From contig JAFQVJ010000022.1 of NCBI GenBank assembly GCA_017408025.1, positions 1 to 50,921 on the forward strand: a DNA stretch of 50,921 nucleotides. The letters are read 5' to 3'. The notes below the pieces were generated by a model. That model was not told the origin of the DNA, made no database searches, and was given only the letters and a program-made list of their open reading frames with translations. The translations under genes were made by a program, and so were the position numbers. How positions within the stretch are numbered: position 1 is the first letter of the stretch; each line of letters begins with the position of its first letter. This DNA is from Lachnospiraceae bacterium. Lineage in GTDB: Bacteria > Bacillota > Clostridia > Lachnospirales > Lachnospiraceae. Of this stretch, positions 30,762 to 50,680 are shown in pieces.

Positions 30762-31826
30762 ATGAAAAAAGCTTTTACATGGTGTTATATATTTACAAAA
30801 CGCCAGCTAAAACGCGCTTCGACAATTTTCATACTGGTTACAATGCTTCTTTTAACCATAGCTCTCAGCGTTATGTCAACTACTATGACAGCTTCCATGG
30901 ATGTTGGATTTTATATTGATTCAACAGATAATGATGCAATCATGATAGGCATAAAAAATGGGCTTCTAAAACACGACGGTCTGCTGAACTTTGTTGCATA
31001 TGATTCAACAGATACTCTAAATGAAGATGTCACTGCCGGCACAATTCAGTGTGGATACATATTTGATGATAATTTCTCCGAAGCCATAGTAAGTGGCAAT
31101 ACAAAAAACATGGTAGAGCTTGTAGAAACACCTGACAATATAGTTTCCCTTCTGTCCAATGTGGTTATTCTCTCAACGGTAATGGAACAATGTGCGTGTG
31201 ATATGCTTATAGAAGATATACTTACTCAAGATTTTTTTGTAAATGTACCTGATAAAGATTTGGAAGTTCTTCGGGATACCTACAATACATTTGCCACAAA
31301 CGGAAGTACTTTTGCGTTTGACTATGACACACTTTACGAGGACTACAAGGGTAGTTCAAATAGCATAGACATCGCACCTTATCTTGTAACACCAGTAAAA
31401 GGCATCATTGCTATTTTTATATTTATTTCTGCACTGACAGGTGGTATCGGATGGTTTAATGACAGTGACAGCGCAACATACGCAAATATCCCACTGAAAA
31501 AACGCTATCTCTTAAGACTTCTAACTATATCTATTCCAACGTTTTTAGCAAGTCTTATGGGATATATCAGCATTCTTTCAGTGGGAATTGGTACAAATGC
31601 CTTATATGAGCTTTTTGCTATATTTGCTTATGAAATATTATGCATCGCTTTCAGCTATATTCTAAGCTTAATTGTCAAGAAAAATATATACAGCTCACTT
31701 ATACCGGTATTCATTTTAGGTTCCATTGTGTGCTGTCCTATATTCTTCAACCTTGGAAACCTTGTGCCATCCCTTAGGGTGTTGCAAAATATTTTTCTAC
31801 CAACCTATTATTTTATGTTGTTCTAG
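30762..31826 (+). CDS. ABC-2 family transporter permease, second subunit
   Basis: A 354-residue membrane protein starting one base after the preceding permease stops. It has one N-terminal span (STIFILVTMLLLTIALSVMS), an extracytoplasmic domain of about 180 residues and five or six C-terminal spans, with FLPTYYFMLF at the end like the PSHY region of ABC-2 proteins. A GWFNDSDSATYANIPLKKRYLLRL loop resembles the cytoplasmic coupling loop. It pairs with the preceding permease as a heterodimer. Its stop codon TAG overlaps the stop codon of the converging kinase gene in a shared CTAG; no terminator was seen between. Confidence 0.8.
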   Translation: MKKAFTWCYIFTKRQLKRASTIFILVTMLLLTIALSVMSTTMTASMDVGFYIDSTDNDAIMIGIKNGLLKHDGLLNFVAYDSTDTLNEDVTAGTIQCGYIFDDNFSEAIVSGNTKNMVELVETPDNIVSLLSNVVILSTVMEQCACDMLIEDILTQDFFVNVPDKDLEVLRDTYNTFATNGSTFAFDYDTLYEDYKGSSNSIDIAPYLVTPVKGIIAIFIFISALTGGIGWFNDSDSATYANIPLKKRYLLRLLTISIPTFLASLMGYISILSVGIGTNALYELFAIFAYEILCIAFSYILSLIVKKNIYSSLIPVFILGSIVCCPIFFNLGNLVPSLRVLQNIFLPTYYFMLF

Positions 31827-34744: not shown

Positions 34745-34755
34745 CTAATGCCTCC

Positions 34756-35544
34756 TTATCTTCCGAAATGTGTATATGATTCCTTCAGGAATATTCTCTC
34801 TAATGTCTTTATAAGCATGTCACTCTCAATAGGCTTTATCAAAAATCCCTCTGGATTAAACTTAGCGCATTTACTTATCATCTCAGCATCGGGTGTTTTT
34901 GTCATAAACAGTATAGGAATATCCTCAGTGCATGCCTCCTGTACGCTCTGCTCAAGCATGGATAAATCACATATTATAAGGTTTGGTTTATGATGCTCTA
35001 TGTAACTCTTTGCTATATCACATGAATTGACTATATTAACCTTATATTTGTGCTCAAGACAGCCCTTCATCTCTCTCAACGTTTCAAAATCTTTATCAAT
35101 TATGAGAACATTGTGGCATATTTCCTTTTCTCTTCTCTTCTTCAACTGCTCATATATTACATTGGTTATACCATCTTTTGAAAATGGTTTAGCAATATAG
35201 TCCTTCATTCCAATACTCAAAAAATTCACTATGGATTCCTTGTTTGAAGGCTCCTCCAACACTAGAAATATAGGATTTTCATCCTTGTATTTTTCTACCA
35301 CTTCATTATAGAAGTTCTCCACATCTTCTATATCCAAACCACTGTCAATAACTATAACATCAAACAGCTTACCATTGCATAAACCACTGGCTGCAGCTAT
35401 TGAATTCACACACTGAAGCTCGTACTCCATAGCAAGTATGGACTTATATAAACCATAATTGCCTAAATCCTTATCTATAATCAGAATGCTGGATCTTCGC
35501 CTTACATCTCTTTTATTCTTCATCTCATCTGATAAACTTGCCAT
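34756..35544 (-). CDS. Tandem double-receiver protein without output domain
   Basis: A 262-residue cytosolic protein made of two receiver domains. The first (about 17-135) has LIIDKD, the candidate phospho-Asp in DVIVIDSG and the conserved Lys in DYIAKPFSKD. The second (about 142-260) has LIIDKD, the Asp in NLIICDLS, FMTKT and the Lys in GFLIKPIES. No DNA-binding, enzymatic or HPt part follows. It is transcribed just upstream of the hybrid kinase, so it probably receives or buffers phosphate in that relay. First gene after the T4P terminator; SD AAGGGG. Confidence 0.85.
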   Translation of the reverse strand: MASLSDEMKNKRDVRRRSSILIIDKDLGNYGLYKSILAMEYELQCVNSIAAASGLCNGKLFDVIVIDSGLDIEDVENFYNEVVEKYKDENPIFLVLEEPSNKESIVNFLSIGMKDYIAKPFSKDGITNVIYEQLKKRREKEICHNVLIIDKDFETLREMKGCLEHKYKVNIVNSCDIAKSYIEHHKPNLIICDLSMLEQSVQEACTEDIPILFMTKTPDAEMISKCAKFNPEGFLIKPIESDMLIKTLERIFLKESYTHFGR

Positions 35545-35683: not shown

Positions 35684-38600
35684 TTATTCCAGATTAAACA
35701 GATTTTTCTGTACTATACGAGCATATATCTCATCCTTGGCACCCTTCCAGTCTGAAACTTCAATTCGGAATTGGGCATATCCATTCTCTGTCTCTTCTAC
35801 CAGACTTTCTATCTGAGCTAATTGCTCACTAGAAAGACTTGTATCTCCCAAACGAAGCTCACTGACAATGCCATTCCTCAGAGGATTGCTCTCTGTATAG
35901 CTCTTTATAAGAACCTCTGTGCCGTCTGGCTTTACCCAGTACACATATGCTTCCTTGAATTTTCCTACAAGGTCCAAATTTCCATTTGCAGCCTCATAAG
36001 ATATAAGGTCGGCATCTGTAGCCTTTATATCCAACTGATAATCGCCGCCTGTAATTGTTGAGTCAGTATATACCATGTATATTCCACCCGAGCCCACTGA
36101 ACCATTTGTAATCATAAGCTCTGGTGCACTGTTACCACCTGCGATTGCTTTAACAATAGTATTAACAAACAGTCTAAGCTCTGCCTCCGAATTCATGGTA
36201 CTATGACCAGCTCCTGAATATGTAATATTATTCTTCGAATAGATGTAATAGTTATTTCCTGCATCCTTCTCAGTACACTCGTAGTATCCGGCACCAGCTG
36301 TTCCATCATCAGACAGTGTATACCATACTACAATATCCTCATCCTCCATATCCAGTTCGTAATACTGTGCATGAGTTTCAGCAACCGTCAATTTCTCATC
36401 AATACTATATGGATACATTGTAACAGGCCCCTCATTGAGCTGTATGACTTTTTTAGTAGTCCACAATCCATCGCTATCATTATAGATAAACTCTGTATTT
36501 GTATATGGTACAAGGGTATACAAGCCACTGCCCGCTCTGCCATATTTTTCACTATAATCTATAGTAAATAGACCTCTGTATATATTCCATGTATTGAAGC
36601 CCTGAAGCTCTTCCACATAATACTTGCCATCAGCTGAGGCACTTGTATAATTAGGTGCCGACAAGCTGTTGCTGTATACTGGAGCTTCCTTGCCATCCCT
36701 ATTGTCCTCAGTTAATGTTATACCATACTTATCAAGACCTACTATATTTCTCAAGCCTATAGTCAACTGATATGCAAAGTTTTGGTTGCCGCCAGGTTGC
36801 CAAGCCGCCCCTGCATTTATCTTTCCAGACTCCTGCATCTCTATATGCTTACTTCCGTCAGGCATAGCTGTTACATAGTTTGGAGTTGCTCTCCAGCTCA
36901 AGGTATCATGTGTAAAGAGTACGGATTTTCCAATCTCTATAAAGTCCAGTATATTGTCTAGAGCACCATACTTGTTGTTGATATCTTGAGAATTGTACAT
37001 ATCCGCAAATCCTATAACAACCATATCGTAGGATTTAAGCTTGTCCTTCTCAGTGTTGATATCTACACCCTTCTCATAGCTATTGTCTCCCGACGCATTA
37101 GGCTTAAACAGAGCTTCATATTGAGAAACCTTCATAGTATCTATGATAATGTTGTATCCTACCTGTTCTTCAACCGCCTGAAGCAAATCCTGAAAATCGT
37201 TTGCTTTAGTCGGATCGTTAGTAGCCAAATTTAATGTAACACTATGTGGTGGCAATATCTGCAAAACTCTTATATCCTTTGAAGTTTCATTCTTGATTGC
37301 CGAATAGCCCTTCTCAGATGTAGCAAGTGCAGTTTCATGACCTGCACCGTCTAGCTGTATAACTTCTATCTTCCATGGCAGCATACCTACGAAGTTATCA
37401 GAAAGTCTAGATTTAATAGTATATTCTGTAGCATTGCCACCATTGAGTGTAATTCTCTCTGAGTAATATAACTCATTACTATCATCAGAAATACCTGCCT
37501 CAATACCCTTAAATACACCATCACTATTCTTATCAACATACAGATTAATCTTGTAAGTCTTACCCACCTGTCCCTTGAGTGTGAACCTGTACCTCAAATC
37601 ACGGCTTCCAAAGGTTGATATAACACCATTTACATACTCTGGTGCTGCTGGTGCTTCAAGCATTGTTATCTGTGGTACCTCATTAGACAGATAAGCCACT
37701 GCACCGCTTATATATTTCTGTCTTATAACACTATAAACACGATGTCCACTCTCATCCTTTATGGCAAGAGTCTCTGATAAATCATAAATATCTGATGTAG
37801 GATAAACTGTGGTTTTGTCCATATCATATAACGAATCTGACAATACAATAATTTTTCCTGCCTCTGCGAACTTCAATAGCTTGTCCTTTGTTATATCCGT
37901 TACGTCGTTATCTGCACCTCTGACATTTCCCAGTGAATAGCTGAGATAAAACTCTCCTGTGCTGTCGTTATAGTCATACTTGCCATATGCGCCACCCTTT
38001 CTGTAATACTCGTACATATTCTTGCTGACAAGTACCTTGCCATTAAGTCCAGCTTCCATAAAGCTATTGAATACATAATCTGTCCACAGATAGTCATGAC
38101 TCGCACTTACATCAGAAAAGTACTGTGTACCAACCTTTAATTCTTCGTATTCACTTGGCAATATACCAAGATAGTTTGAACCTACCTTGAATAAATCTCC
38201 ATATGCCAGATATTTATATCCGTTAAGATTTCTATCATTGTATATAGTATTTCCGTCACCATCCTTGGTGAGCAATTCTATATTCTCACCGATGATAATC
38301 ATATCGTACTTTGCGTTCAGATCATCTGTCATACCATTGAGAGCATTTGTGGTCACACAATCTACTTGGAGATAATTCTTGTAATTCTCCTCTGTCCAGC
38401 TGTCTGCTCCTGCCATAAGAAGCCTTTTACCCAACTCTTTAACTTCGTCAAATGTGTCATAATCAAAGGAGTTACATGGCTCCACTTCCAGAACCCTCAT
38501 AGTATAGTCGTATCTCTTTATTTGCGAAGACTTCGCCCCCAAGAGGTACTGAATTATTCCCTCTGCTGTTGTACTTGATCCGGTTCTACCTGTGAATCCC

Positions 38601-39886
38601 GGATTATTACCATAGTCTGATGGACTGGACATATTTGCAGGTATAAGAAGCTGAGTGCCCGGATATACCACAAAATTGTCTGTAAGCCATGTCTGATATT
38701 TGCCTTCAAAGCAATTCGTCACTATAGCATCCTTGTATTTACCACCATCATAAATATCATAAAAAGAGTTGAGTACACTGCCACCAGCATCACCAAAACT
38801 AATCGGTGTTGTCTCATCAAAGGTTCCAGTTGCTGTAATATCTAAAGCAACCGTTACCAGACCATTACTCTCTGATATATACTGTTTTTCTGTTCCATCC
38901 GCAGCTGTATATGTAGTGCTCAAATATTGCTTCAAGACCTCGTACAATTCAGCTGGATTAACATATGAATCATTATCTATATTTTCAACGCCAGCAAGAG
39001 TTCTATATATCATGGCAAACTTAAAAAGGTTAGTATCCTTATTGATTTCATATGTTTGACCGTTATCAAGAACTATAGGTGTCTTCACTGTTACAGTTGT
39101 TCCATCTGAGAGCGTAAGCTCTCTACCATTTATAGTACATTCCAGAAGTTCTTCACACATAGCCCACTCTGCATCACGCGATACATATGTAACATTGCCC
39201 GCTTCGTCTGTAACCTTCTCGTAGGTATTGTAATATTTATCAGAAGAAACATCTCCTGTACTTGTATAAAATACATTGCCAGTAATTCCAGTCCAGCTCT
39301 CATAGCATGACAATGTTCCATTATCGTGATTCTTTGTTGAATATATGATTAAATCAGCTTGTTCTATAAGCTCTGCTGTTAAATCATTTGCCTCAACTGT
39401 ATCCAGATGAATTCTATCTGCCAGTAAACCTGAATAATCTCCCAGTACGTTATTTAAGAAAGCATTTTTACTTCTTATCTCATACAGACCTGTAGCTGAA
39501 TTCTTCCTAATCTCATATCCAAAATTAGAAAATCCCCCATCCTGAAGCGTCTGCCATGCGTTGCCACTCCAATACCAGCCTGAAAGCTTGTCCTGTTGTG
39601 CCTCAAGACTTTCTCTGACCTTAGGTTCATCTAGGTAGTAACGAAACTCTCCGAATCCAGTATATGGCACTATCTCCAATATTTTAAAATCCTCCTGAAG
39701 TCCATTAATTATTCGGTCAACAATATACTCCATATATGCTTTCTCTGAACCTTCAGCTGAAACATTGTCCATGTTATTGTTGCCAAACCATACAAATGAA
39801 CCTGCAAGAATAGTCACAGCCACAAGTATGCTTATAGCTCTTGTCTTAATATTTGTTTTCTTTATAAATCTTTTAATTGCTGCCAT
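35684..39886 (-). CDS. Giant secreted protein of the type IV pilus operon (DUF5057-like)
   Basis: A 1400-residue exported protein with one N-terminal hydrophobic segment (residues 17-34) and a VSAEG end. KILEIVPYTGFGEFRYYL near the start and two Rossmann- or amidotransferase-like blocks (YDMIIIGENIELL near 530; YDMVVIGFADMY to SVLFTHDTLSWR near 960) recall DUF5057 proteins of Clostridia. An EF-hand-like loop DKNSDGVFKGIE lies near 785. No sorting motif, LysM or other anchor was seen. It starts eight bases after a minor pilin gene, the last in the operon. By position it may be a pilus-tip or pilin-associated adhesin, like PilY1 in role but not in recognised sequence; this is inference. Confidence 0.7.
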   Translation of the reverse strand: MAAIKRFIKKTNIKTRAISILVAVTILAGSFVWFGNNNMDNVSAEGSEKAYMEYIVDRIINGLQEDFKILEIVPYTGFGEFRYYLDEPKVRESLEAQQDKLSGWYWSGNAWQTLQDGGFSNFGYEIRKNSATGLYEIRSKNAFLNNVLGDYSGLLADRIHLDTVEANDLTAELIEQADLIIYSTKNHDNGTLSCYESWTGITGNVFYTSTGDVSSDKYYNTYEKVTDEAGNVTYVSRDAEWAMCEELLECTINGRELTLSDGTTVTVKTPIVLDNGQTYEINKDTNLFKFAMIYRTLAGVENIDNDSYVNPAELYEVLKQYLSTTYTAADGTEKQYISESNGLVTVALDITATGTFDETTPISFGDAGGSVLNSFYDIYDGGKYKDAIVTNCFEGKYQTWLTDNFVVYPGTQLLIPANMSSPSDYGNNPGFTGRTGSSTTAEGIIQYLLGAKSSQIKRYDYTMRVLEVEPCNSFDYDTFDEVKELGKRLLMAGADSWTEENYKNYLQVDCVTTNALNGMTDDLNAKYDMIIIGENIELLTKDGDGNTIYNDRNLNGYKYLAYGDLFKVGSNYLGILPSEYEELKVGTQYFSDVSASHDYLWTDYVFNSFMEAGLNGKVLVSKNMYEYYRKGGAYGKYDYNDSTGEFYLSYSLGNVRGADNDVTDITKDKLLKFAEAGKIIVLSDSLYDMDKTTVYPTSDIYDLSETLAIKDESGHRVYSVIRQKYISGAVAYLSNEVPQITMLEAPAAPEYVNGVISTFGSRDLRYRFTLKGQVGKTYKINLYVDKNSDGVFKGIEAGISDDSNELYYSERITLNGGNATEYTIKSRLSDNFVGMLPWKIEVIQLDGAGHETALATSEKGYSAIKNETSKDIRVLQILPPHSVTLNLATNDPTKANDFQDLLQAVEEQVGYNIIIDTMKVSQYEALFKPNASGDNSYEKGVDINTEKDKLKSYDMVVIGFADMYNSQDINNKYGALDNILDFIEIGKSVLFTHDTLSWRATPNYVTAMPDGSKHIEMQESGKINAGAAWQPGGNQNFAYQLTIGLRNIVGLDKYGITLTEDNRDGKEAPVYSNSLSAPNYTSASADGKYYVEELQGFNTWNIYRGLFTIDYSEKYGRAGSGLYTLVPYTNTEFIYNDSDGLWTTKKVIQLNEGPVTMYPYSIDEKLTVAETHAQYYELDMEDEDIVVWYTLSDDGTAGAGYYECTEKDAGNNYYIYSKNNITYSGAGHSTMNSEAELRLFVNTIVKAIAGGNSAPELMITNGSVGSGGIYMVYTDSTITGGDYQLDIKATDADLISYEAANGNLDLVGKFKEAYVYWVKPDGTEVLIKSYTESNPLRNGIVSELRLGDTSLSSEQLAQIESLVEETENGYAQFRIEVSDWKGAKDEIYARIVQKNLFNLE

Positions 39887-39894
39887 ATCCTCAC

Positions 39895-40557
39895 CTACTT
39901 TACTCGGTACAAGCTTTCACTTGTTGCGTTAATCAGTAATGTTTCTCTCCCATCAGTGGTATATAGCACCACCTCGCTTAATATATTTCTAGCTTTCACA
40001 CTTATATCTACATCTGACTCTTCATCGCCATAAGCAAGTGTCATGCTAATGTTTATAGATAACGGATTGACGTAATATTCTTCCTCGTGTTCACCAGCAC
40101 CCGTAACCCTCTTGCACTTCTCATCGATACTTATATCCATATCTGCAACCCACTCTGACAAGAGATTTCCTTCTGCTATTGCGGACCCATACGCACTGGA
40201 AATATACAGCTTTTGCTCCGATTTGTCGTAGGTGATAATACGTTCTGTGGTAACCTCGCTTGTCCCACCTGCTCCAGATGACTCTGCCACAAGACAATTA
40301 TTGTTCCCATCCACTGAGCCAGTATAGATAACTAAGTCCTCACCAGCCCTTACAATCGCTATGGATTTTGCACCCATGATAGCTTCACTTATCTGGTTCC
40401 TGACTATCTGAATCTCATTTTGCATATCTATGTTTTCATTTTCGCCCTTGAAGAGATTTGTTCCCTGCACAAGCATAAATGATATCATCAGAAGCACAAT
40501 ACTCGATACCGCTATGGTAACCAATAATTCAATTAAAGAAAAACCTTTGTTGTTCAT
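39895..40557 (-). CDS. Type IV pilin-like minor pilin (PilW/PulJ-type)
   Basis: A 220-residue prepilin. The leader is only MNNKG, cleaved before FSLIELLVTIAVSSIVLLMISFML, with Glu at mature position 5, as in class III signal peptides processed by PilD. The size and soluble part (with QNEIQIVRNQISEAIMG after the helix) resemble PilW/GspJ-type minor pilins. SD GGAG seven bases before the ATG. It stops eight bases before the giant secreted protein gene, which supports co-assembly with it. Confidence 0.85.
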   Translation of the reverse strand: MNNKGFSLIELLVTIAVSSIVLLMISFMLVQGTNLFKGENENIDMQNEIQIVRNQISEAIMGAKSIAIVRAGEDLVIYTGSVDGNNNCLVAESSGAGGTSEVTTERIITYDKSEQKLYISSAYGSAIAEGNLLSEWVADMDISIDEKCKRVTGAGEHEEEYYVNPLSINISMTLAYGDEESDVDISVKARNILSEVVLYTTDGRETLLINATSESLYRVK

Positions 40558-40615
40558 AATCTACTCCATTTTCTAGAACATACTGTCTTACTGCAAAATC
40601 CATCCAGAATTCTTG

Positions 40616-41191
40616 TTACTCTCGTTCACATTTTCCTGTATTATAAAATATCTTCATAACAATATCGTAGCTTCCATCACTTATCTCTATACGCCCGATA
40701 CCGTTTGCTATACTAGCATTTGTTCCAGCCACTGTTACCTTGCTGGCTTTGCCTGTAGCGGAATCAAAATATATGCATAGCGGCGTGGCTTCGTCTATGA
40801 CCCAACTACTCACACCATCTTTAAATGTGACAGTAACACTGTGGTTGTAATCATTTTCGTCCACTTCTACCGTTTTTAACTCCGTCGTTTCTCCCACTGA
40901 CTCTTCAACGGTTTTACAAAGCTTTGTCACATAGTCACCATCCTCAACGGTCACCATCATATACCACTCTTTGGCACTTACACTCATGCTCTTGGTTCTA
41001 GCCATAGTCACATAGTCCTCTATACCTTGCTCCACCTCTTTTACATTAGAAGTACTCAATATAGATGATGATGCTATTGCAACCGCCACAAATACAGCCA
41101 TGATAGCTATAACTACTATAAGCTCCATCAGTGAAAAGCCTTTGTTGTTAATTCCTCTATTCAGATGTGAAGATACGCTTTTAGTCTTCAT
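40616..41191 (-). CDS. Type IV pilin-like minor pilin (FimT/GspH-type)
   Basis: A 191-residue prepilin. An 18-residue basic leader ending INNKG is followed by FSLMELIVVIAIMAVFVAVAIA with Glu5. Following the helix, VKEVEQGIEDYVTMARTKSMS is typical of FimT/GspH-type pilins. Its start overlaps the end of the PilX-like gene by 11 bases; the SD (GGAG) lies inside that upstream gene. It is thus translated in step with its neighbours and probably belongs to a priming complex with them. Confidence 0.85.
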   Translation of the reverse strand: MKTKSVSSHLNRGINNKGFSLMELIVVIAIMAVFVAVAIASSSILSTSNVKEVEQGIEDYVTMARTKSMSVSAKEWYMMVTVEDGDYVTKLCKTVEESVGETTELKTVEVDENDYNHSVTVTFKDGVSSWVIDEATPLCIYFDSATGKASKVTVAGTNASIANGIGRIEISDGSYDIVMKIFYNTGKCERE

Positions 41192-43616
41192 ATTTTCTCC
41201 AATTGTTAAAGTTAACCAAATCCTTGTAATCTACTGTTTCTACTTTTACTTCCTCACGGCTGTCATCCTCTGTTGCCGCATGCTTATACGCATTGAAGTA
41301 TTCTTTAAATGGTATATCTTCTGTCTCCTCTGTATCTCTAAAGCCATACTCCATTGTGATAAGCTGTTCAACTAGAGCAGCACTTGTTTTTATAGTAGCA
41401 TCGTTTGTTATAACAATGTCTCCACCTGCTATTATAAGTCCCTCAAAGTCACCCTGAACCTGGACATCTCCAGCTGCAACAATCACGCCACCATTGCATT
41501 CTTTCGGCACATTGAAGTTACCATTTTTAGCAATTTTTATATAATTGATACCCTCTGGGTACTGAATATATGTGCCTGTAGGATTATATTCCTTACTTTC
41601 AAGCAATCCCTTATCAATGATGTTATTAAATATATTGCTTGTAGTTAACTCGTTTCCATTTACTAGATAATTCTTGTTCTGCCACAACGCTGAATCCACA
41701 TCATTTACAATATACTTCTTACCAGTGTAAGCATCTGTCCATGGCATGTTTGCAAGAAGATGTGTAAATATCTCATATCTATTCTTAAGATCAAGTGATG
41801 TCAATACAAACTCATCATTTCCAAGAGCTGTATTTGTGTTAGCGCCAACCCAGTTGTCAATCTGTGAAGATGATACACCATCCTTAATACCAATACTTCC
41901 AGAAGATGTTGTGAGAAGCGCGCCCTTTGTAATTATCTGCCCTCCACCACTATTGATTATGGCTTTTCCCGTATCACCAAATAAGCTTGCCGTGTACTGG
42001 ATAAGAAGCTTCTTAAGTGAGCCTGGTGCACCATTTGTACCGTTTGCCACATCCTTTACATACTGCGCTGCAGCATCCTTATTAGTAAAGTTAAGATATA
42101 CATATATACGGTCTCCAACATTCTTTGCAGTGTATGGCATAGTACTGAGATATCCTGCCTCCTCTGCAAAGAAACCATCCATGTCACATACTTTTACCTC
42201 TGAATCCGGAGCTGCCGCTGCTGCATTAAGGTTATTCCATGTCTCCTCTGGCATAGGATTTGAAACAGGTGTACCAAAGTTTATAGCCAAATATTCCGAT
42301 GGCACCAGATAGATTTCCTGATCTCCCTTAAATGCCAACGACTCGCCTGTTGTGTAGTAGTTATCGCCTACTTCTATGTATGCATGACCACCTAAAATCA
42401 TCTTCGAAGTTCCAAGAGTAAGCTTAGCTCTCTTACCATTTATAATTATAGCACTGCTGTTGGCATGAAGTGCATTTACATCATATCCGTCATAGCTGTA
42501 ACCATAATATTTACCGTTTATTTCAATCTCACTGTCCTGCCCTTCTATAGTAAGGTCGTCTTTTACAAATGTGCTACAGAATTCGTCTATATTTACACTG
42601 CATCCTGCCGATTTATCTGTACTACCGATAGTAGTAGGCATGGTCACAAGGTTTGTACACCATATATTTACGCCTGTAGCTGTAAGACTCGCCTTTGTAT
42701 CTGTAGTTCCCATAATTGAAATAGTACCAGCATTACCATCTGTATTTCCACCACATATAATATTTGCCGGCTCGCCGTCCAGTGTACCTACTGTAGACAA
42801 GTTGAGGTGTGCTCCACCCATTGTGTTGGAAACTATATTTATCATACCACCAGCATACATAGACGCCTGTACATTGACAGTTTTTCCATCAATCTTCAAA
42901 TTGTTATCTGCTATCATGGTATAATTGATAAAATCATTAAGTGTATTTGTAGTAGAGAAATTTACTGTCATATTGGGGAACTGAAGCTCCAAATCTGCTG
43001 TGACATCTGAAAAATATGTCTCTCCTTTTTTCTCTTCTTTATAAGAAACTGCCACATCTCTGATAATGAGCATATATGAACGACCTGTTGACGAATTCTT
43101 GTACGCCTCCACATTACCTATAGATGTAATACTTGCCATACCCTCATCATATCCTTTTATAAATCCCTGAAGATATTGCTTTACATACTCTTTCTTTGTC
43201 ACATCTATGCTTAAGAAGTCTTCCTGACCACTTGTAAATGCCATCTGACCGTTCGATATTCTATCAAGCATACTTTCTATAAATATGTTCTTGAACTCTT
43301 CATTTGCCTGGTCGTTGTCAACGATGTACGAGTAACCTGCGGCATCCTCTTTTATAATACTCTTAAGTACAGATTCATATGCCACACCTAACTGGTTCAT
43401 ACTGTCAAGACCCACACCTGCACGAATCTCATCCAAAACGGACTCTGCGGTGTAGAAGGTTGCCTTGGAATTTCTATCGACGCCTTTCATGGCAATATTG
43501 TTGGCCGACGCCGCCAAAATAGCCACCGCAAGGGTAGTTATAAGAGTTATGATGATAAGCGCCATAACAAACGTTGAACCTTGGTTATTTAATTTTGGAA
43601 TTTTTATCTTTTTCAT
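41181..43616 (-). CDS. Very large PilX-like prepilin
   Basis: An 811-residue protein. The N-terminus KIPKLNNQG/STFVMALIIITLITTLAVAIL matches the PilX_N pattern: short leader, Gly cleavage site and hydrophobic helix, but Met instead of Glu at mature position 5. The following YTAESVLDEIRAG agrees with PilX. Usual PilX proteins have about 170-250 residues; here the passenger is some 780 long, with Gly/Thr-rich beta-repeat segments (IICGGNTDGNAGTISIMG) and a C-terminal VIVAAGDVQVQGDFEGLIIAGGDIVI. Lack of Glu5 favours a place at the pilus tip, as for GspK. ATG 43616 has GGAG upstream; the longer frame to 43673 is unsupported. Confidence 0.78.
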   Translation of the reverse strand: MKKIKIPKLNNQGSTFVMALIIITLITTLAVAILAASANNIAMKGVDRNSKATFYTAESVLDEIRAGVGLDSMNQLGVAYESVLKSIIKEDAAGYSYIVDNDQANEEFKNIFIESMLDRISNGQMAFTSGQEDFLSIDVTKKEYVKQYLQGFIKGYDEGMASITSIGNVEAYKNSSTGRSYMLIIRDVAVSYKEEKKGETYFSDVTADLELQFPNMTVNFSTTNTLNDFINYTMIADNNLKIDGKTVNVQASMYAGGMINIVSNTMGGAHLNLSTVGTLDGEPANIICGGNTDGNAGTISIMGTTDTKASLTATGVNIWCTNLVTMPTTIGSTDKSAGCSVNIDEFCSTFVKDDLTIEGQDSEIEINGKYYGYSYDGYDVNALHANSSAIIINGKRAKLTLGTSKMILGGHAYIEVGDNYYTTGESLAFKGDQEIYLVPSEYLAINFGTPVSNPMPEETWNNLNAAAAAPDSEVKVCDMDGFFAEEAGYLSTMPYTAKNVGDRIYVYLNFTNKDAAAQYVKDVANGTNGAPGSLKKLLIQYTASLFGDTGKAIINSGGGQIITKGALLTTSSGSIGIKDGVSSSQIDNWVGANTNTALGNDEFVLTSLDLKNRYEIFTHLLANMPWTDAYTGKKYIVNDVDSALWQNKNYLVNGNELTTSNIFNNIIDKGLLESKEYNPTGTYIQYPEGINYIKIAKNGNFNVPKECNGGVIVAAGDVQVQGDFEGLIIAGGDIVITNDATIKTSAALVEQLITMEYGFRDTEETEDIPFKEYFNAYKHAATEDDSREEVKVETVDYKDLVNFNNWRKYED

Positions 43617-43685
43617 AAATCTTCTCCATCTCTTTGAAAAAATCCTACAGATTCTCTCGGTGTGGAACCACACTTAGTGTTCTCC

Positions 43686-44822
43686 TTATTTGCTAGTGGT
43701 AAATGAAGTTACCACCTTGTCTTCTCCTTCCAGTCTCACATCCACACTCAACTCATAAAGAGCTGTTCCAGTGTTGTAATCTCCATATGTAAGACCATAC
43801 TTATTATCAAATGTTGTATCTCTATCGCCTATATTTGTATATACCTTAAGGCTGTTGCTTTCGTTATTATATTCTGTGTACTGTTTATCATTTATATAAA
43901 CATTTCTAGGATTGATACGCTCCTGTAATGTCTGTCCCGGAAGCATGTTAGTCATCTTCTGCTCTGCTATGTAGAAGTACATGTCATGCTTGAATTCTGG
44001 TGCTCCATTATATGTATAATATATTTTTATGGAATCTGTGTTGTAATAATAGTCCGTAGCCATATCAGCAGTTGAGTATCTGTCAAATATCGGACAAAGC
44101 ATGTAGATATTGTGTATCTCATTCTGGTCATATGACTTTTCCAATGTTTTTACAACATACACTGGCTCTACATCGTCATATGTATATGTAATCTCAACAT
44201 TAATCTTATAGAGATATTTGCCAGTTGTGCTGTTATAATCACACACTATATTTACGACTGTGGATTTCTTAATGTCTTTTCTCACATCTATGTCATTGAT
44301 TCTGGACAATGTATCTGGTTCCAGCTTTCCTGCAAACAACTCCTCCAGCTGCTCATCCGGGCCTGCATACTGTCTGTACAGCATGATGCAATCAGAACCA
44401 TATAATCCCGAAAATACTGGAAGGTTCACATCATTTACCTCCACCTTGCCAGTACCTTCCCCTACTCTGTACTGAGTCGGGTCAAGCTTTACATCTACAA
44501 TAAAATCTTCTCCGTCTGCTCCCTCTGCCTCTATCCCCTCAAAGGTGTATATGCCAGTAGCATCATCAAACGATACAGTAACACCATCTGCCTCGTAGGT
44601 AGACACAAGTGTGTCCAAATCAAATGACTTGAACAGCTCCGCAGTATCCTGTGCTACTGCGGTGCCGTTCTGTATAAGTCTCGCCTTACTGTTTGTCTCC
44701 ATGGCGTTTAAAAAGCTGTTGATAAGAGGCGCTGCAATCAAAGCAATAATAGCCACTGTAACTAACAGTTCCACAAGGGACATACCTTTGTTATTCAGTT
44801 TTCTTGTTGCAAATCGTCTCAT
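43686..44822 (-). CDS. Type IV pilin-like minor pilin (PilV/GspI-type, large)
   Basis: About 378 residues. The leader RRFATRKLNNKG precedes MSLVELLVTVAIIALIAAPLINSFLNAM with Glu5; NNKG-MSLVELLV is like PilV/GspI prepilins. The rest is a long, Tyr- and Asp-rich soluble domain, larger than a normal minor pilin (150-200). The ATG at 44822 is preceded by AAGGA; the longer frame to 44849 is less likely. It sits between pilO and the PilX-like gene, matching the usual cluster of minor pilins that prime T4P assembly. Confidence 0.82.
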   Translation of the reverse strand: MRRFATRKLNNKGMSLVELLVTVAIIALIAAPLINSFLNAMETNSKARLIQNGTAVAQDTAELFKSFDLDTLVSTYEADGVTVSFDDATGIYTFEGIEAEGADGEDFIVDVKLDPTQYRVGEGTGKVEVNDVNLPVFSGLYGSDCIMLYRQYAGPDEQLEELFAGKLEPDTLSRINDIDVRKDIKKSTVVNIVCDYNSTTGKYLYKINVEITYTYDDVEPVYVVKTLEKSYDQNEIHNIYMLCPIFDRYSTADMATDYYYNTDSIKIYYTYNGAPEFKHDMYFYIAEQKMTNMLPGQTLQERINPRNVYINDKQYTEYNNESNSLKVYTNIGDRDTTFDNKYGLTYGDYNTGTALYELSVDVRLEGEDKVVTSFTTSK

Positions 44823-44930
44823 ATCTTTTTTCCTTCTTTTTATTAACATTCTTTTTCAAAACATGTGCCAAATCTTGTTCTTACACCGTTAGGCAAGTTT
44901 ATGATTTGTTTCTTACATTTTTTTATATGA

Positions 44931-46073
44931 CTATTCATTATAGAATATCACGTTGCCCTCTGTCTTTTGTATATTTACTCTTGGGCTCTCCTTATCATCA
45001 TTTATGACAGCTATATTAAGCGGCATATCTGACTCATTGATAATAGTTACGTTGGCAAGTGTTGCATCATTCTTGTCTACTCTTGGCTTACTTATAATAA
45101 GCATATCGAGTGTCTCACCACAAACAAGAGTTGCTCCATCATTGAAGTTTTCTGCTGGATAAACATTGCTTCCAATCTTATAGCTTACCTTATACTCACC
45201 TGCGCTACCTGTCACACGGAGAGTTACATCTGCCACACCATCCGTATCAGTTGAAACTGCTGCCTCATTTGATGGATCGTTTGCCATACCGACTGCCATA
45301 GTCGACATGTCAGAACCAGCCTGATTCATAATCATGTACAGATCATAATCGTTAATGATTTTTTCTCTGTATGAGTTGTCAATTCCAGATGATATAAATG
45401 TATCTGATGCAAATACGTTGTCTGTACCTACTGCAACATCATTGATTATAACATCCTTCACCTCTCTGTCAGAACCGGTGATTGCGTAAAGTGTCATCTG
45501 CATAGTTCCTGTTACTATATCTGTGGACTCACTATATGAAAATGTTATATTGCTGATTGTTGCTTTCCTGCCATTTTCCTCAAGATATGTGAGCACATTC
45601 TTTAAGTCATCATATGTACACTCATAGGCAAGGATCATAGATGTACTTATACCCATGTAATCACTTGAGTACACCTTTTGTCCCAAGGATGATGGATTCG
45701 TAGATGTAATATCACCAAATTTGTATACTGTTGAAACTTCACTAAAGCCAACCTGCTTTAACCATACGCCTGTGTTCTTCTCAACCATTCCAAGAAATAC
45801 AAGAGTCTGCTCCTGACTGAGGCTTGTATTAAAAGAATCAACAGTTGCCTGATATAAGGTCTTTGCCATCTCTGTATCCTCAATCATAATCTGTTTGCGG
45901 GCATTTTTCACAACAAGATCATTGTATTCTTCTTTAAGTTCCTTGTATTCCTGCTCATTCTCTGTCACAGCATCACTAAAGTTAGTAAACAGCTTCACTG
46001 AGCCTGCGATAATACCCACTATAAGAAGCAGGAGCAATAATTTTTTGTCTCTATCAGATAATTTAAATCCCAT
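44931..46073 (-). CDS. pilO: Type IV pilus assembly protein PilO with C-terminal extension
   Basis: A 380-residue bitopic membrane protein. A short cytoplasmic start, one span (LLLLLLIVGIIAGSVKLF), a coiled coil (AVTENEQEYKELKEEYNDLVVK) and a ferredoxin-like domain (about 75-200, TLVFLGMVEKNTGVWLKQVGFSE ... ISNITFSYSESTDIVTGTMQMTLYAI) match PilO, which bridges the inner-membrane PilM/N to the pilus base. Unlike typical PilO (about 200 residues) it has 180 further residues with beta-sandwich-like content (GVADVTLRVTGSAGEYKVSYKIG). It starts one base after the pilMN stop, so the two are coupled. Confidence 0.82.
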   Translation of the reverse strand: MGFKLSDRDKKLLLLLLIVGIIAGSVKLFTNFSDAVTENEQEYKELKEEYNDLVVKNARKQIMIEDTEMAKTLYQATVDSFNTSLSQEQTLVFLGMVEKNTGVWLKQVGFSEVSTVYKFGDITSTNPSSLGQKVYSSDYMGISTSMILAYECTYDDLKNVLTYLEENGRKATISNITFSYSESTDIVTGTMQMTLYAITGSDREVKDVIINDVAVGTDNVFASDTFISSGIDNSYREKIINDYDLYMIMNQAGSDMSTMAVGMANDPSNEAAVSTDTDGVADVTLRVTGSAGEYKVSYKIGSNVYPAENFNDGATLVCGETLDMLIISKPRVDKNDATLANVTIINESDMPLNIAVINDDKESPRVNIQKTEGNVIFYNE

Positions 46074-46074
46074 A

Positions 46075-47700
46075 TTACTGTTCCTCCTCTTCTGCAGTAG
46101 TCTCTGTCTCGCCCTCAGCCGCTACGCTTTCTTCCTGTGGCGCAATAAATGACTCTATCTGTGAATTAAATGTACACACTATACTAAACGAAGACGAGAC
46201 AACACCATAGTCATCCTTTGCCTCTGTGGTGCTGGATACATACACACCAGCCACTCCCGGCATACTCTTAAGCTGTGTTATAAACTTAGCTATGGTCTGC
46301 TTTGTGCTGGTTGTGGCAGATATGGACACCTGACCATTTGCCACAGTCATACTCTTAATAGACACATCACTTGGCTGTGCTTTCTCTAGCGCATACAAAA
46401 AGTCCAACATATAGTCGTTTGGATTAGTCGCTATGTCCAGAAATGTTGTCATATCTTTAAGCTTGTCCGTTGCATTATAATAAGCATCTACTACCACTTC
46501 CACATCCTTGATTTTATCTATCTTTTCCTCCATATCGCTTATGTCAGAGTTGACAGACAGATTCTGAATACCTGGTATAGCTATAAGTATTACACCTGCT
46601 ACAAGCGAAGCAGCAGCACCAATTAGAAGATATGTCACACTCTTATCTTTCTTAGTTACACCTGCCACTGTTTCTGGCTGGAAATTGACCGGCTCCATAA
46701 CAGCACCTGCACATGATATAAAGTGAGATACAGATTTTGGACCAACATGGAGGTAAGGTGCAAATGTGAAGCCCTGAAAACTCATAATAGGCGTTACACT
46801 GAAGTCAAACTCAGTAGCGAAGAGATCCTCAAGTCCTACAAGGCTTACAGACTCACCTGTAAGATACGCCTTCTCTACAGGACTGTCACTATTTCTGGAT
46901 GTATAGAATTCAACAACTCTCACGATACTGTTTACAAGATATCTGAGAGACTCTGTTACTTCATCGCCGTCAAATGAGCTGTGCAATATTCTCTCCTTTG
47001 CAAGAATCTCCTCCGCGGCCTCCTCGTCTACATTTCGCTCCTCCATAAGGGTTTGTATGACAATATTCTTGCCATAAGGAACAGTTCTTTGGAACTCAAG
47101 GACATTTTCCTTAAATATATTAACTACTGTAGAATCATCACGAACCTGTATAACTATAGATGTCTCTGGTCCTATCTGTCTCTTTAAAAGTGCCACTGTG
47201 GCATTACCATAGCTTTCAATATTCTTGACCATGAGACCAAGCTTCTCTGCTAACTGATAATATGACTCTATCATATCCTTCGGAGCCGCAAACACATTTA
47301 CACGGAGCTGTTTTTCACCACTATCCGTCACAACCTTTGATACAATCTTCTCTGTGACAATATAATCATCTATATTAACAGGAAAATAATCAGATGCGTT
47401 TGCTTTTATCATATCGTCAAGCTTGGCTGGCTTAATAGCTGGTGTGTACACCTCTTTCATAACAATCTTCGACGAGTCAAGTACGAATATAATCTCCTTG
47501 GCTGCAATTGATTCCCTTGCCATCTCTGCGGACATATATGCCGCCAATCTTTCCATATCAAGAATCTTTCCATCTTCTACTGTTCCTTCAGGGGTATCTA
47601 CCTTGAAGATTCTCTGAATAACAGTCTCCTTTGAAGAATGGCTTATCTCACATATTTTAATATTCACATTACTTATATGAGCTGTGATTATAGCTGCCAT
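46075..47700 (-). CDS. pilM: PilM-PilN fusion, type IV pilus assembly
   Basis: A 541-residue fusion. Residues 1-330 form the actin-like PilM ATPase fold (ITAHISNVNIKICEI; YFPVNIDDYIV; VIQVRDDSTVVNI; KAYLTGESVSLVGLEDLF). A transmembrane segment near 355-372 (VTYLLIGAAASLVAGVILIAI) leads to a coiled coil (DMEEKIDKIKDVEVVVD) and the PilN domain (DYMLDFLYALEKAQPSDVSIKSMTV ... SMPGVAGVYVSS). In most bacteria PilM and PilN are separate proteins; a fused pilMN is known from Clostridioides difficile. It begins an inner-membrane assembly unit with pilO, one base downstream. SD AGGAGGAGG. Confidence 0.87.
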   Translation of the reverse strand: MAAIITAHISNVNIKICEISHSSKETVIQRIFKVDTPEGTVEDGKILDMERLAAYMSAEMARESIAAKEIIFVLDSSKIVMKEVYTPAIKPAKLDDMIKANASDYFPVNIDDYIVTEKIVSKVVTDSGEKQLRVNVFAAPKDMIESYYQLAEKLGLMVKNIESYGNATVALLKRQIGPETSIVIQVRDDSTVVNIFKENVLEFQRTVPYGKNIVIQTLMEERNVDEEAAEEILAKERILHSSFDGDEVTESLRYLVNSIVRVVEFYTSRNSDSPVEKAYLTGESVSLVGLEDLFATEFDFSVTPIMSFQGFTFAPYLHVGPKSVSHFISCAGAVMEPVNFQPETVAGVTKKDKSVTYLLIGAAASLVAGVILIAIPGIQNLSVNSDISDMEEKIDKIKDVEVVVDAYYNATDKLKDMTTFLDIATNPNDYMLDFLYALEKAQPSDVSIKSMTVANGQVSISATTSTKQTIAKFITQLKSMPGVAGVYVSSTTEAKDDYGVVSSSFSIVCTFNSQIESFIAPQEESVAAEGETETTAEEEEQ

Positions 47701-47820
47701 TTCTTCCTCCTCCTTTTATGTTTTATAATAAAATTCTGCTTGAATTTTTTTTCTTATTTTGTTACCTTTTATTGTGTTCTCTACATATATAAATCAAATT
47801 CTTCATTGTTTAGGTCAGGC

Positions 47821-48591
47821 TTAGGTCAATAAGCCAATATACCAATCCACCAATTGTTCTCCATAGAACATTGCAAAAAAAATGCCCAAAGACAAATATG
47901 GTCCAAATGCCAATGTTCTGTCCTTCTTAAAAAATATCATAAGAATGATATGTATAACCGAGCCAAGTATACAGCCTAAGAAGAATGCTGCCACTATGCC
48001 CTTCCATCCAAGCAACAGCCCAGTTGCTGCCATAAGCTTTATATCGCCACCACCGATTCCTCTGCCTCCTGTAACCAAAAAAACTATAAACAGAAATAGG
48101 CTGATAGCTACCATACCTATAAGGTAGGTTACAATATGTTCAAAATCATATATAACTCTCACTATACCCAATGCGAATATAAATATATTAAACGCCACTG
48201 GAATCTCAAAGGTTCTCCAGTCAATAACACTACGCGCCAGTATTGCTGACATACATAGACAATACAATATGCTGACGAAGTTAAAGCCGTTCACAACGAA
48301 TATCCATACATACCCGACTCCATTGATAAACTCTATCAATGGATACTGTATAGAAATCCTTGTGCCACAATATCTGCATTTACCTTTGAGGAACAGCCAG
48401 CTGAATAGTGGTACAAGATCGTACCACTTCAACTGTGTTCCACACTCCATGCAATGCGAGCGTTCTGTCGCAATATTCTCTTTTTTCGGTATTCTATATA
48501 TACAAACATTTAAAAAACTTCCTATAACTATACCGTAGAGGAATACTATAACATATATAAATGTTGTAAACAGTTTTAACTCACTTAGCAT
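47821..48591 (-). CDS. pilD: Prepilin peptidase (A24 family)
   Basis: A 256-residue inner-membrane aspartic protease that cleaves and N-methylates prepilins. The cytoplasmic loop contains the two zinc CxxC pairs (CMEC and CRYC, residues 48-75). The catalytic Asp are in SVIDWRTFEIP and in the GIGGGDIKLM (GxGD) motif. FLNVCIYRIP near the N-terminus is also diagnostic. It acts on the five prepilins encoded nearby. It lies between pilA and pilMN in the same direction; SD AAGGA. Confidence 0.95.
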   Translation of the reverse strand: MLSELKLFTTFIYVIVFLYGIVIGSFLNVCIYRIPKKENIATERSHCMECGTQLKWYDLVPLFSWLFLKGKCRYCGTRISIQYPLIEFINGVGYVWIFVVNGFNFVSILYCLCMSAILARSVIDWRTFEIPVAFNIFIFALGIVRVIYDFEHIVTYLIGMVAISLFLFIVFLVTGGRGIGGGDIKLMAATGLLLGWKGIVAAFFLGCILGSVIHIILMIFFKKDRTLAFGPYLSLGIFFAMFYGEQLVDWYIGLLT

Positions 48592-48632
48592 ATTTTCATT
48601 CCTTGTTGTAAATCAATTTGTTCTAACAACTA

Positions 48633-49172
48633 TTAATTTTTTACTGCCTCATCTGAACCCTGGTTATATACAGTTCCTACAATGTATGCATCATAGTCAT
48701 CATTTTCTGCATCATTAACTGGTACAACAATTGATACAGCACCATCAGTGATTGTTACAAAAATATCAGCTAATGTTATATCTTCAAATGCAGCTGATGA
48801 AGAATTAAAAGTACCCTGTACAGTTCCTGCTGTAACTGTACCACTACTTGGATCTTCTGACGCATTATTTCCTGTCATAGTAAATACTTCTGCCAAAACG
48901 TTTCTGATTGTACCTGATGTATCCTGATTGATAAGATCCTGCAACGAACTATTTGCTACATCTCCACTATCAACCTCTGTTACATATGTGCTTATTGCTG
49001 ACTTCAAAGAATCAAGTGCCTGTACATCCTTAGAATACTTTGATTTCTCAATGTATCCTAAAATTGTTGAACCAAGTACTGCGATAAGTACTACCATGAT
49101 TGTGATAACAACGATTAACTCTACGAGGGAGAAACCTTTGTTATTCTTCTTCATTTCTCTTAACTTCTTCAT
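48633..49172 (-). CDS. pilA: Major type IV pilin candidate (PilA)
   Basis: A 179-residue prepilin. The leader KKLREMKKNNKG precedes FSLVELIVVITIMVVLIAVLGSTILGYIEKSKYSKDVQ, with Glu5 and a methylatable Phe1, typical of a major T4a pilin. The C-terminal 100 residues are Gly/Ser/Thr-rich with no cysteine, so no D-loop disulfide. The ATG at 49172 has GGAGG eight bases upstream; the longer frame to 49238 is discarded. It follows pilC after a 290-base intergenic zone containing repeats and hairpins that could set its expression. Confidence 0.85.
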   Translation of the reverse strand: MKKLREMKKNNKGFSLVELIVVITIMVVLIAVLGSTILGYIEKSKYSKDVQALDSLKSAISTYVTEVDSGDVANSSLQDLINQDTSGTIRNVLAEVFTMTGNNASEDPSSGTVTAGTVQGTFNSSSAAFEDITLADIFVTITDGAVSIVVPVNDAENDDYDAYIVGTVYNQGSDEAVKN

Positions 49173-49246
49173 GTTAAAATCCTCCATTTGTGTTTTATAG
49201 TGTTTTTTCTGTGAAACACGGTTATCACGTTGTCTCACGTATATAT

Positions 49247-49286: not shown

Positions 49287-49301
49287 TTAACTTTTTAATG
49301 A

Positions 49302-49466
49302 GCGTTGTTTCCTCTAAACTAACATGTTTGGAGCCTCTGCCATCGCTTTGCGATATTTCCTCCAAACTAGCATGTTTGGAGCCTCTGCCATCGCTTTGCG
49401 ATATTTCCTCCAAACTAGCATGTTTGGAGCCTCTGCCATCGCTTTGCGTTGTTTCCTCCAAACTAA
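49302..49466. repeat. 48-bp tandem repeat array between pilC and pilA
   Basis: Three full 48-bp units (from 49308, 49356 and 49404) and a partial fourth that includes the pilC stop codon. Only a few bases differ between units, mostly at the outer ends. On the mRNA strand each unit boundary forms CTCCAAAC-ATGCTA-GTTTGGAG and each unit interior forms ATCGC-AAA-GCGAT, so hairpins alternate. The period keeps a reading frame (16 codons) but the only frame begins with TTG inside pilC; it is treated as non-coding. Confidence 0.85.
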
Positions 49467-50680
49467 CCCTCTGCAAGTCCGTACATTCCTAAGATTGGCG
49501 CGTAAATTGCCGCTATTATGGCAACAACTACTACCGCCATAACTACAATGATAAGTGGCTCCATCATTGATGTTGCCTGCTTTGTCGTTATCTCAACTTC
49601 CTCATCATAGTACTCTGCCACGTTGTCAAGCATACTTTCAACAGAACCCGATTCCTCACCGATTGTCAGCATATGTATAACCATCGGTGGGAAGAGACCA
49701 CTTGCTTTGAGCGGTGCAGATAGTGGCATACCTATCTTTACCTGCTTTATCGCTTCCTGCAACACATCCTTATATAGTATATTATCAAGGGTCTTACCTG
49801 TTATCTCTATAGCCTCAATAAGAGGCATACCTGCTGACATCAGCGTCGAAAGAGTTCTCGAAAATCTGGCACACTCTGTCTTGGTGGTAAGAGCTCCAAA
49901 CACCGGTATCTTAAGCTTTACCCTAGCCACGGTTCTTGAACCACTCTCAGAACGTGCATACGCCTTATAGCATATAACTATAGCCGCTATGACAATCATC
50001 CATATATACCACGTATCTACCAGAGAATCACTCAAACCCATAACCATCTGTGTATATGCCGGTAACTCCTCTCCCATGCTGGAGAATGTGTCCTCAAATC
50101 CTGGAAGAACCATAACAAGCATAATAACTACAATAACAACGGTTACACACATCAGCACTATAGGATACATCATAGCCTGCTTAACCAGTCCCTTGAGCTT
50201 TGAATCCTTGTCAAAGTGTGTGGACATTCTCTCTAACGCAACTTCAAGGCTACCTGACGCCTCACCTGCTTCCATCATATTTATAAGGATATTAGGAAAT
50301 ACACCGTTTTCTTTTTTCATAGCGCCTGCCAGTGTCTCACCTTTTTGTACATTGTCCTTTACATTTTTAAGTGCTTCCTGAAGTTTTTTATTGTTTGTCT
50401 GAGTACTTAACATATCAAGTGCCTGCACGATACCAATACCTGCATGAAGTATACTCTTAAACTGCTTACAGAAGATACCCAAATCTCTAGACTTTACTTT
50501 TTTTCTACCAAATCCTCCGATGGAAATTTCCTTATTAAGGAGAGATGCCTCCTCAATCTTCAGAACGGTCATTCCCTCTGACTTTATGTGGGCTTTAGCT
50601 CTTTCCATTGAGTCAGCTTCTATATTCCCTTTTTTCGTTTTACCATTTCTGTCTAAAGCCTGGTATATAAACTCTGCCAT
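49463..50680 (-). CDS. pilC: Type IV pilus inner-membrane platform protein PilC (type II secretion F family)
   Basis: A 405-residue inner-membrane protein that couples the assembly ATPase to the growing pilus. The N-terminal cytoplasmic part has EFIYQALDRNGKTKKGNIEADS; two T2SSF repeats follow (FCKQFKSILHAGIGIVQALDML ... GEASGSLEVALERMSTHFD, and FSRTLSTLMSAGMPLIEAIEITG ... GEESGSVESMLDNVAEYYDEEV) with three spans (VVIVVIMLVMVLPGF; WYIWMIVIAAIVICY; PLIIVVMAVVVVAIIAAIY). Complete and canonical. Its ATPases PilB/PilT are not in the window. Both flanks carry repeat arrays. SD AAAGGGAAGAG. Confidence 0.95.
   Translation of the reverse strand: MAEFIYQALDRNGKTKKGNIEADSMERAKAHIKSEGMTVLKIEEASLLNKEISIGGFGRKKVKSRDLGIFCKQFKSILHAGIGIVQALDMLSTQTNNKKLQEALKNVKDNVQKGETLAGAMKKENGVFPNILINMMEAGEASGSLEVALERMSTHFDKDSKLKGLVKQAMMYPIVLMCVTVVIVVIMLVMVLPGFEDTFSSMGEELPAYTQMVMGLSDSLVDTWYIWMIVIAAIVICYKAYARSESGSRTVARVKLKIPVFGALTTKTECARFSRTLSTLMSAGMPLIEAIEITGKTLDNILYKDVLQEAIKQVKIGMPLSAPLKASGLFPPMVIHMLTIGEESGSVESMLDNVAEYYDEEVEITTKQATSMMEPLIIVVMAVVVVAIIAAIYAPILGMYGLAEG

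What the first reader, a model, noticed from the sequence alone, without database searches (positions are those of the whole stretch)
35684..43616. Pilus operon encodes unusually large tip-like proteins next to its minor pilins
Seen: an 811-residue PilX-type prepilin lacking Glu5 and a 1400-residue secreted protein lie in one operon with three minor pilins, with gaps of a few bases or overlaps. Known: in other T4P and type II secretion systems PilX/GspK-like proteins without Glu5 cap the fibre, and PilY1 binds the minor pilin complex. Inference: the two form an oversized Clostridial tip complex, with the 1400-residue protein as adhesin.
Basis: partly seen in the sequence, partly recalled or inferred. 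Interest (0 to 1): 0.75.

Follow-up and report, generated by a model that had tools for sequence, protein, structure and literature searches.

The report
Large pilus-tip protein pair in Bacillota
A gut bacterium's grappling-hook pilus operon encodes two unusually large proteins that travel together with the pilus genes in many related bacteria, and that probably form its tip in place of the tip protein known from other bacteria.

Summary
A type IV pilus (T4P) operon (pilC-A-D-MN-O, three Glu5 minor pilins, an 811-residue prepilin "X" with Met5, and a 1400-residue exported protein "G", Pfam DUF5057) lies at 35684-50680. In four other families, 7 of 7 above-cut-off DUF5057 genes lie in T4P clusters with an X-like gene, in f108 on the opposite strand. 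X lacks Glu5 in 56 of 56. Strong X occurs with G or a DUF5057-less "G-lite" in 45 loci, without in 1; weaker X 0 with, 8 without (after kinship only suggestive, p 0.125). G holds three related repeats and ends in a conserved motif (43 of 48). It is not PilY1 (no PF05567). Best reading: G is a PilY1-analogous, non-pilin tip effector docked on an X-capped minor-pilin complex.

The parts
35684..39886 (-). G: 1400-aa exported protein, DUF5057; repeats D1 (res. 58-455), D2 (457-738), beta-type 736-868, D3 (868-1256), C-terminal beta-type domain 1248-1400 ending NLFNLE (domain limits set by eye)
39895..40557 (-). J: minor pilin with Glu5, ComGF-like (below that model's cut-off)
40616..41191 (-). H: minor pilin with Glu5, weakly GspH-like (below cut-off)
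41181..43616 (-). X: 811-aa prepilin without Glu5 (Met5), GspK/PilK-type cap candidate
   Evidence: no Pfam family above cut-off
43686..44849 (-). V: 387-aa minor pilin with Glu5, weakly HpsC/GspI-like (below cut-offs)
44931..46073 (-). PilO-position protein (380 aa), no Pfam family; named by position only
   Evidence: conserved at this place in relatives
46075..47700 (-). PilM-PilN fusion
47821..48591 (-). prepilin peptidase PilD
48633..49172 (-). major pilin candidate (ATG at 49172, 179 aa)
49463..50680 (-). platform protein PilC

Best explanation
The locus encodes a Bacillota type IV pilus whose tip carries a large two-part head. Step 1 (shown by sequence): X is a prepilin lacking Glu5, encoded with three Glu5 minor pilins in the order V(I-like)-X(K-like)-H-J. 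Step 2 (inferred from T4P/T2SS knowledge): these prime and cap the fibre, X outermost. Step 3 (inferred from co-inheritance): G, exported by Sec and carrying no prepilin leader and no recognised wall anchor, is held by the X/J part of the minor-pilin complex, probably through its C-terminal domain and last residues, and exposes its three related repeats outward. Step 4 (inferred): G is the effector that touches the surface, as an adhesin or a binding or processing module. It works like PilC/PilY1 but is unrelated to it.
For: X lies upstream of DUF5057 on the same contig and strand in 41 of 44 DUF5057-positive genomes of a family sample of 200; exceptions G009 and G100 (DUF5057 near contig edges) and G025 (652-aa remnant). 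42 of 44 G-family members follow a J-type minor pilin, gaps -44 to +148 nt, one 559 with a small ORF between. 7 of 7 above-cut-off matches in four other families lie in T4P clusters with an X-like gene; in the three f108 loci G is on the other strand next to X. No Glu5 in 56 of 56 X. Strong X with G or G-lite 45, without 1; weaker X 0 with, 8 without, Fisher p 9e-9 uncorrected for kinship. With general divergence removed, G distances track J (r 0.44) and X (0.40) better than V (0.27), H (0.21), PilO (0.21) in 30 loci. C-terminal motif in 43 of 48 G against 30 of 877 other ORFs, the pattern having been written after looking at the ends. PMC10191384 passages: tip complex capped by a subunit lacking Glu5; PilC/PilY1 caps PilHIJK in diderms.
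Against: No structure, contact or localisation data. On a PilMN tree the X-G link rests on 5 independent pairs, 4 agreeing, 0 opposing, 1 not differing, p 0.125, so kinship alone is not excluded. L091 has strong X and no G downstream. By model coverage rather than score, 4 loci without G have full-length X. The X C-terminal YxNW motif is also in X without G. Distance correlations also link X to V (0.34) and PilO (0.33). Besides DUF5057 (28 of 29 G scanned) each other Pfam family, among them a ricin-type lectin domain, is in 1 of 29, so a binding domain is not the rule. The C-terminal motif is not kept in the other families.
Confidence: 0.66

Rival explanations
1. G is a substrate released by the pilus machine, as in type II secretion, and is not a stable part of the tip.
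For: Sec-type N-terminus and no C-terminal LPXTG in the 48 checked; in T2SS the minor pilins bind secreted effectors (PMC10191384 passage); weak GspH/GspI-like hits.
Against: No outer membrane is expected in this lineage, so a secretion piston is not needed after Sec (inference); two PilB/PilT-type ATPase matches side by side on C53 suggest a retractable pilus (PilT reading inferred); G goes with strong X.
Confidence: 0.13
2. X alone is the tip adhesin (a large prepilin with a grafted domain); G is a co-regulated surface protein that does not touch the pilus.
For: Modular pilins with grafted domains are documented (PMC8179133 passages); X is large; J is sometimes enlarged, to 1396 aa.
Against: G stays beside X in T4P clusters even on the other strand in f108, which co-transcription alone does not explain; G is missing in 8 of 8 weaker-X loci scored.
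Confidence: 0.13
3. G is a pilus-borne or surface enzyme (GATase1/ThuA-like repeats with conserved His/Asp), not primarily an adhesin.
For: D3 matches ThuA weakly but best of the outside families compared (P 15, E 0.0018; vWA P 0.13, E 0.44); conserved H993, D994, H1172, H1228.
Against: The ThuA match is not significant by itself, its alignment held partial rows, and D1 and D2 do not match; no catalytic family is common in Pfam (one of 29 G has a weak glycoside-hydrolase C-terminal-domain hit; none in window fragments).
Confidence: 0.08

Closest known systems
PilC/PilY1 tip protein of diderm T4aP
   Same: Very large non-pilin with Sec-type N-terminus, encoded with the minor pilins; partner for a Glu5-less cap (role inferred).
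   Different: No PF05567 beta-propeller; three related repeats instead; found in Bacillota T4P loci. PMC9934059 (passage) states that PilC/PilY1 is absent in monoderms.
GspK/PilK minor pilin (fibre cap)
   Same: Gly-terminated prepilin leader, no Glu5, encoded with minor pilins weakly like H, I and J.
   Different: 703-1079 aa in the G-bearing family loci, no GspK or PilX_N hit for the window protein. Short 250-350-aa versions (L081, L083, L086) go without a G gene seen, though the L081 contig ends before the slot.
Modular pilins PilB/PilC of Streptococcus sanguinis
   Same: Large, probably tip-exposed effectors on a monoderm T4P.
   Different: There the effector is fused to a pilin (PMC8179133 passages); G has no prepilin leader and no vWA similarity.
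Pfam DUF5057 (PF16480)
   Same: Window G is a member, E 6e-58.
   Different: The Pfam description gives no function and no paper in the library holds the word; the family is here tied to T4P, and a form without the DUF5057 match, G-lite, is described.

Membership tests
PilC/PilY1 | C-terminal beta-propeller PF05567 | tested here: not met
   No hit in the window G or among the families listed for 29 scanned G
PilC/PilY1 | Large exported non-pilin encoded with minor pilins | tested here: met
   SPase-I-like pattern in 48 of 48 (a loose pattern, no signal-peptide predictor run); gene order
PilC/PilY1 | Location at the pilus tip and role in piliation | not testable with these tools
   needs experiments
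GspK/PilK cap | Prepilin leader with Gly at -1 and no Glu at +5 | tested here: met
   56 of 56 X proteins
GspK/PilK cap | Sequence match to a known K or PilX family | tested here: not met
   Window X: none in Pfam above cut-off or in NCBIfam; PilX_N 2 of 41, best E 0.002
GspK/PilK cap | Structure in complex with I and J | not testable with these tools
   structure prediction switched off
Type IV pilus machine | PilC, PilD, PilM, PilN, pilins, extension ATPase PilB | tested here: met
   T2SSE match E 2e-137 on C53
Type IV pilus machine | Retraction ATPase PilT | tested here: inconclusive
   Only a partial 210-aa T2SSE ORF at the edge of C53, taken to be PilT
DUF5057 | PF16480 above cut-off | tested here: met
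   197.5 bits against 27.9
vWA-type tip adhesin | von Willebrand A domain | tested here: not met
   hhalign P 0.13-0.17, E 0.36-0.44 for D1, D2, D3 and two D3 cuts
ThuA/GATase1-like fold | Profile similarity | tested here: inconclusive
   D3 P 15, E 0.0018; D1 and D2 below P 1

The most novel reading that the evidence does not exclude
Bacillota have their own equivalent of PilY1, spread over several families: a DUF5057 tip effector built from a triplicated alpha/beta (possibly GATase1-like) domain, docked to an enlarged Glu5-less cap pilin (X) and J through its C-terminal end, whose middle can be lost (G-lite) or grown (up to about 2850 residues) to retarget the pilus.
Probability: 0.4. Interest if true: 0.78.

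Novelty: new variant of a known kind. Interest (0 to 1): 0.62.

Why it matters
Monoderm T4P are held to lack the non-pilin tip adhesin PilC/PilY1 (PMC9934059 passage). A conserved, unrelated, giant non-pilin tied to the Glu5-less cap pilin in T4P loci of several Bacillota families would fill that gap, give a function to a family of unknown function, and offer a concrete handle on how Lachnospiraceae attach to surfaces.

Tried and rejected
PilY1 homology of G: rejected (no PF05567). A PilY1 survey (own genome; 299 phylum genomes) found none, but no control rang either, so it proves no absence. vWA adhesin: rejected. PDB sequence profiles: no match for G; for X five weak matches, the best to pilin helices, E 0.024. 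ThuA-like fold: kept as a lead only; the ThuA alignment of 21 rows held partial ones (34 to 220 aa). Idea that the X C-terminal YxNW motif is coupled to G: rejected, it is also in X without G. Viral contigs: 111 pattern stretches, no relative of G. A single-protein search for G-lite in 8 genomes found only the query itself, and missed four genomes with G-lite, so it is too insensitive to place a missing G for L091. A first X-G table and a first tree included L081, whose contig ends inside J; both were redone, the tree without L081, L082 and L096, the table without L081. L082 (odd 2475-aa V, 300-aa X outside the X family) and three loci fetched later (L166, L167, L168) are not in that table: L167 has X and G, L168 a 220-aa X and no G seen, L166 a strong X and only a cut slot ORF without a G match. 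The DUF5057 match in G241 (below cut-off) is not in a T4P cluster and was not counted. L093 held no such operon and L094 a different cluster with PilA- and PilC-like genes; neither was used.
Full report
What is there. The window is one whole contig (C59, 50,921 bases) of a 2.35 Mb genome in 71 contigs; the one named relative found is a Lachnospiraceae MAG from goat rectum (L032). On the minus strand from 50680 to 35684 lie pilC, a major pilin candidate, pilD, a pilM-pilN fusion, a pilO-position gene, minor pilin V, X, minor pilins H and J, and G. Two T2SSE-family (PilB/PilT-type) matches sit side by side on C53, the second a partial ORF at the contig edge; I read them as pilB and pilT.

The two large proteins. 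X is 811 residues, with a Gly-ended leader and Met at mature position 5. In 55 relatives plus the window, position 5 is never Glu (56 of 56; L, M, V, I, S, T or F; the script that placed the cleavage site favoured Glu, so this is not built in). X has no Pfam family above cut-off and no NCBIfam hit; among 41 aligned X (window included) PilX_N appears in 2 and bactofilin in 1, all weak. G is 1400 residues with DUF5057 at 660-994. Its N-terminus looks like a Sec signal; an SPase-I-like pattern occurs in 48 of 48, but the pattern is loose. None of the 48 showed LPXTG near the C-terminus; 3 of 48 matched a lipobox-like pattern in the N-terminal stretch.

Is it chance? In a sample of 200 genomes of the family, 44 have DUF5057 and 61 have X. 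Forty-three genomes have both, 18 X alone, 1 DUF5057 alone (G025, a 652-residue remnant), 138 neither (Fisher p 5e-28, not corrected for kinship). X lies upstream on the same contig and strand in 41 of 44; in G009 and G100 the DUF5057 gene is near a contig edge and X on another contig. I fetched 41 loci from 40 of the 43 other positive genomes (G042, G092, G100 not fetched). With L032 and two G-lite loci these give 44 G-family members, of which 42 follow a J-type minor pilin, at -44 to +148 nt, one at 559 with a small ORF between; the others are L072 (the G025 remnant) and L073 (contig edge). The order pilC-A-D-MN-O-V-X-H-J-G is largely constant in these loci.

Outside the family. Samples of 391 class and 299 phylum genomes gave 7 above-cut-off matches in four other families (f43, f65, f29, f108). 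All 7 lie in T4P clusters with an X-like gene (X profile E 9e-52 to 8e-7). In the three f108 loci, from another class, G is on the opposite strand beside X, with pilC, pilD and pilMN relatives on its other side (an ORF there that I take for pilB was not tested), so the association outlives the operon.

Loci with T4P genes but no DUF5057. I fetched 19 loci as such (L077-L094, L096); L093 and L094 proved to be something else and L096 ends inside pilMN. In five (L077, L078, L080, L087, L090) the slot after J holds an 802-1024-residue exported protein that matches the N-terminal part of the G profile (E 2e-35 to 6e-8), in L077 and L087 also its C-terminal part, and that the DUF5057 scan did not list: 'G-lite'. 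A sixth, G083, has a 2847-residue G relative in the slot (E 7e-84) that the Pfam scan missed. Where X is short or divergent, the next genes are housekeeping-like ORFs, a further pilin, or unrelated ORFs, in L083 one with a lipoprotein-like N-terminus; none matches the G profile (L081 cannot be judged). Strong X (E < 1e-100): 45 with G or G-lite, 1 without (L091); weaker X: 0 with, 8 without. By coverage of the model instead, 4 loci without G have full-length X. On a PilMN tree of 54 rows the label changes 5 times; of 5 independent pairs X goes with G in 4, against in 0, and does not differ in 1 (p 0.125), so the statistics after kinship are suggestive only.

Partner choice. In 30 loci, after removing what PilC, PilMN and PilD distances explain, G distances correlate with J 0.44, X 0.40, V 0.27, H 0.21, PilO 0.21. 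X also correlates with V (0.34) and PilO (0.33), so this points to, but does not prove, J and X.

Anatomy of G. D1 and D2 are related (hhalign P 96.3, E 1.5e-9), as are D2 and D3 (P 96.5, E 8e-10), while D1 and D3 match only weakly directly (P 10): a triplicated domain with a beta-type region between D2 and D3 and another at the end (these two match weakly, P 18; 'beta-type' is by eye). D3 is weakly like ThuA (P 15, E 0.0018), the best of all comparisons with outside families; vWA and pilus controls have E of about 0.1 or more. Residues 1151-1250 are the best conserved stretch. The last five residues fit [LFMYVI][FLYMHIQW]x[LMI][DENTY] in 43 of 48 G and G-lite proteins of the family against 30 of 877 other ORFs in the same loci; the pattern was written after viewing the ends, and the other families lack it. 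I read this end as a docking tail (inference). Inserts lengthen G mostly near residues 101-112, 349, 881, 936, 1063 and 1142, which suggests a constant frame with variable exposed parts. One of 29 G has a ricin-type lectin hit (E 2e-4) and one Listeria-Bacteroides repeats.

How it most likely works. From published T4P knowledge (PMC10191384, passages), minor pilins form a tip complex capped by a subunit without Glu5, and in diderms the non-pilin PilC/PilY1 sits on it. PMC9934059 (passage) says PilC/PilY1 is absent in monoderms. Here X has the cap signature and G is the co-inherited non-pilin. The simplest model is a tip of V-X-H-J carrying G. Shown: gene content, co-inheritance, Glu5 loss, domain repeats. 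Inferred: tip position, contact, adhesion.

Literature. The word DUF5057 occurs in no paper of the library. Searches for PilY1 with Gram-positive T4P, Lachnospiraceae T4P, Roseburia T4P, monoderm T4P, clostridial PilK and Paenibacillus T4P gave listings, most of them capped; none of the titles or abstract openings shown describes this gene. I opened passages only of PMC8179133, PMC9934059, PMC10191384, PMC9523054 and PMC6916266. PMC9523054 describes other unannotated clostridial secretion-related operons (CpaF, DUF5411), not this one, in the passages seen.

Verdict.

Noticed in passing
31823-35544: A hybrid 7TM histidine kinase (973 aa) and a double-receiver regulator (262 aa) follow G on the same strand; in L032 two ORFs of similar size (283 and 971 aa) follow G too, not compared. 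They could couple pilus contact to signalling.
   Followed up: partly
49308-49465: A 48-base tandem repeat (3.3 copies, 96% matches) lies between pilC and the major pilin gene.
   Followed up: no
22306-26991: A 1561-aa ORF with a Listeria-Bacteroides (InlB B-type) repeat near its end, possibly another large surface protein.
   Followed up: no
L097:8668-12369: In family f43 (genome G239) a second large protein (1234 aa; NPCBM, SdrD_B and SpaA-type domains) sits between the minor pilin and G, an adhesin-like companion.
   Followed up: partly
L082:5226-12650: A 2475-aa prepilin with a weak GLUG motif hit in the V position, in a locus with a 300-aa X-like prepilin and no G seen: the giant domain may have moved to another pilin.
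   Followed up: partly
L038, L043, L047, L069, L086: The J minor pilin is enlarged to 827-1396 aa in several loci, with and without G; in the four of these five that were scanned no Pfam domain beyond N_methyl was hit.
   Followed up: partly
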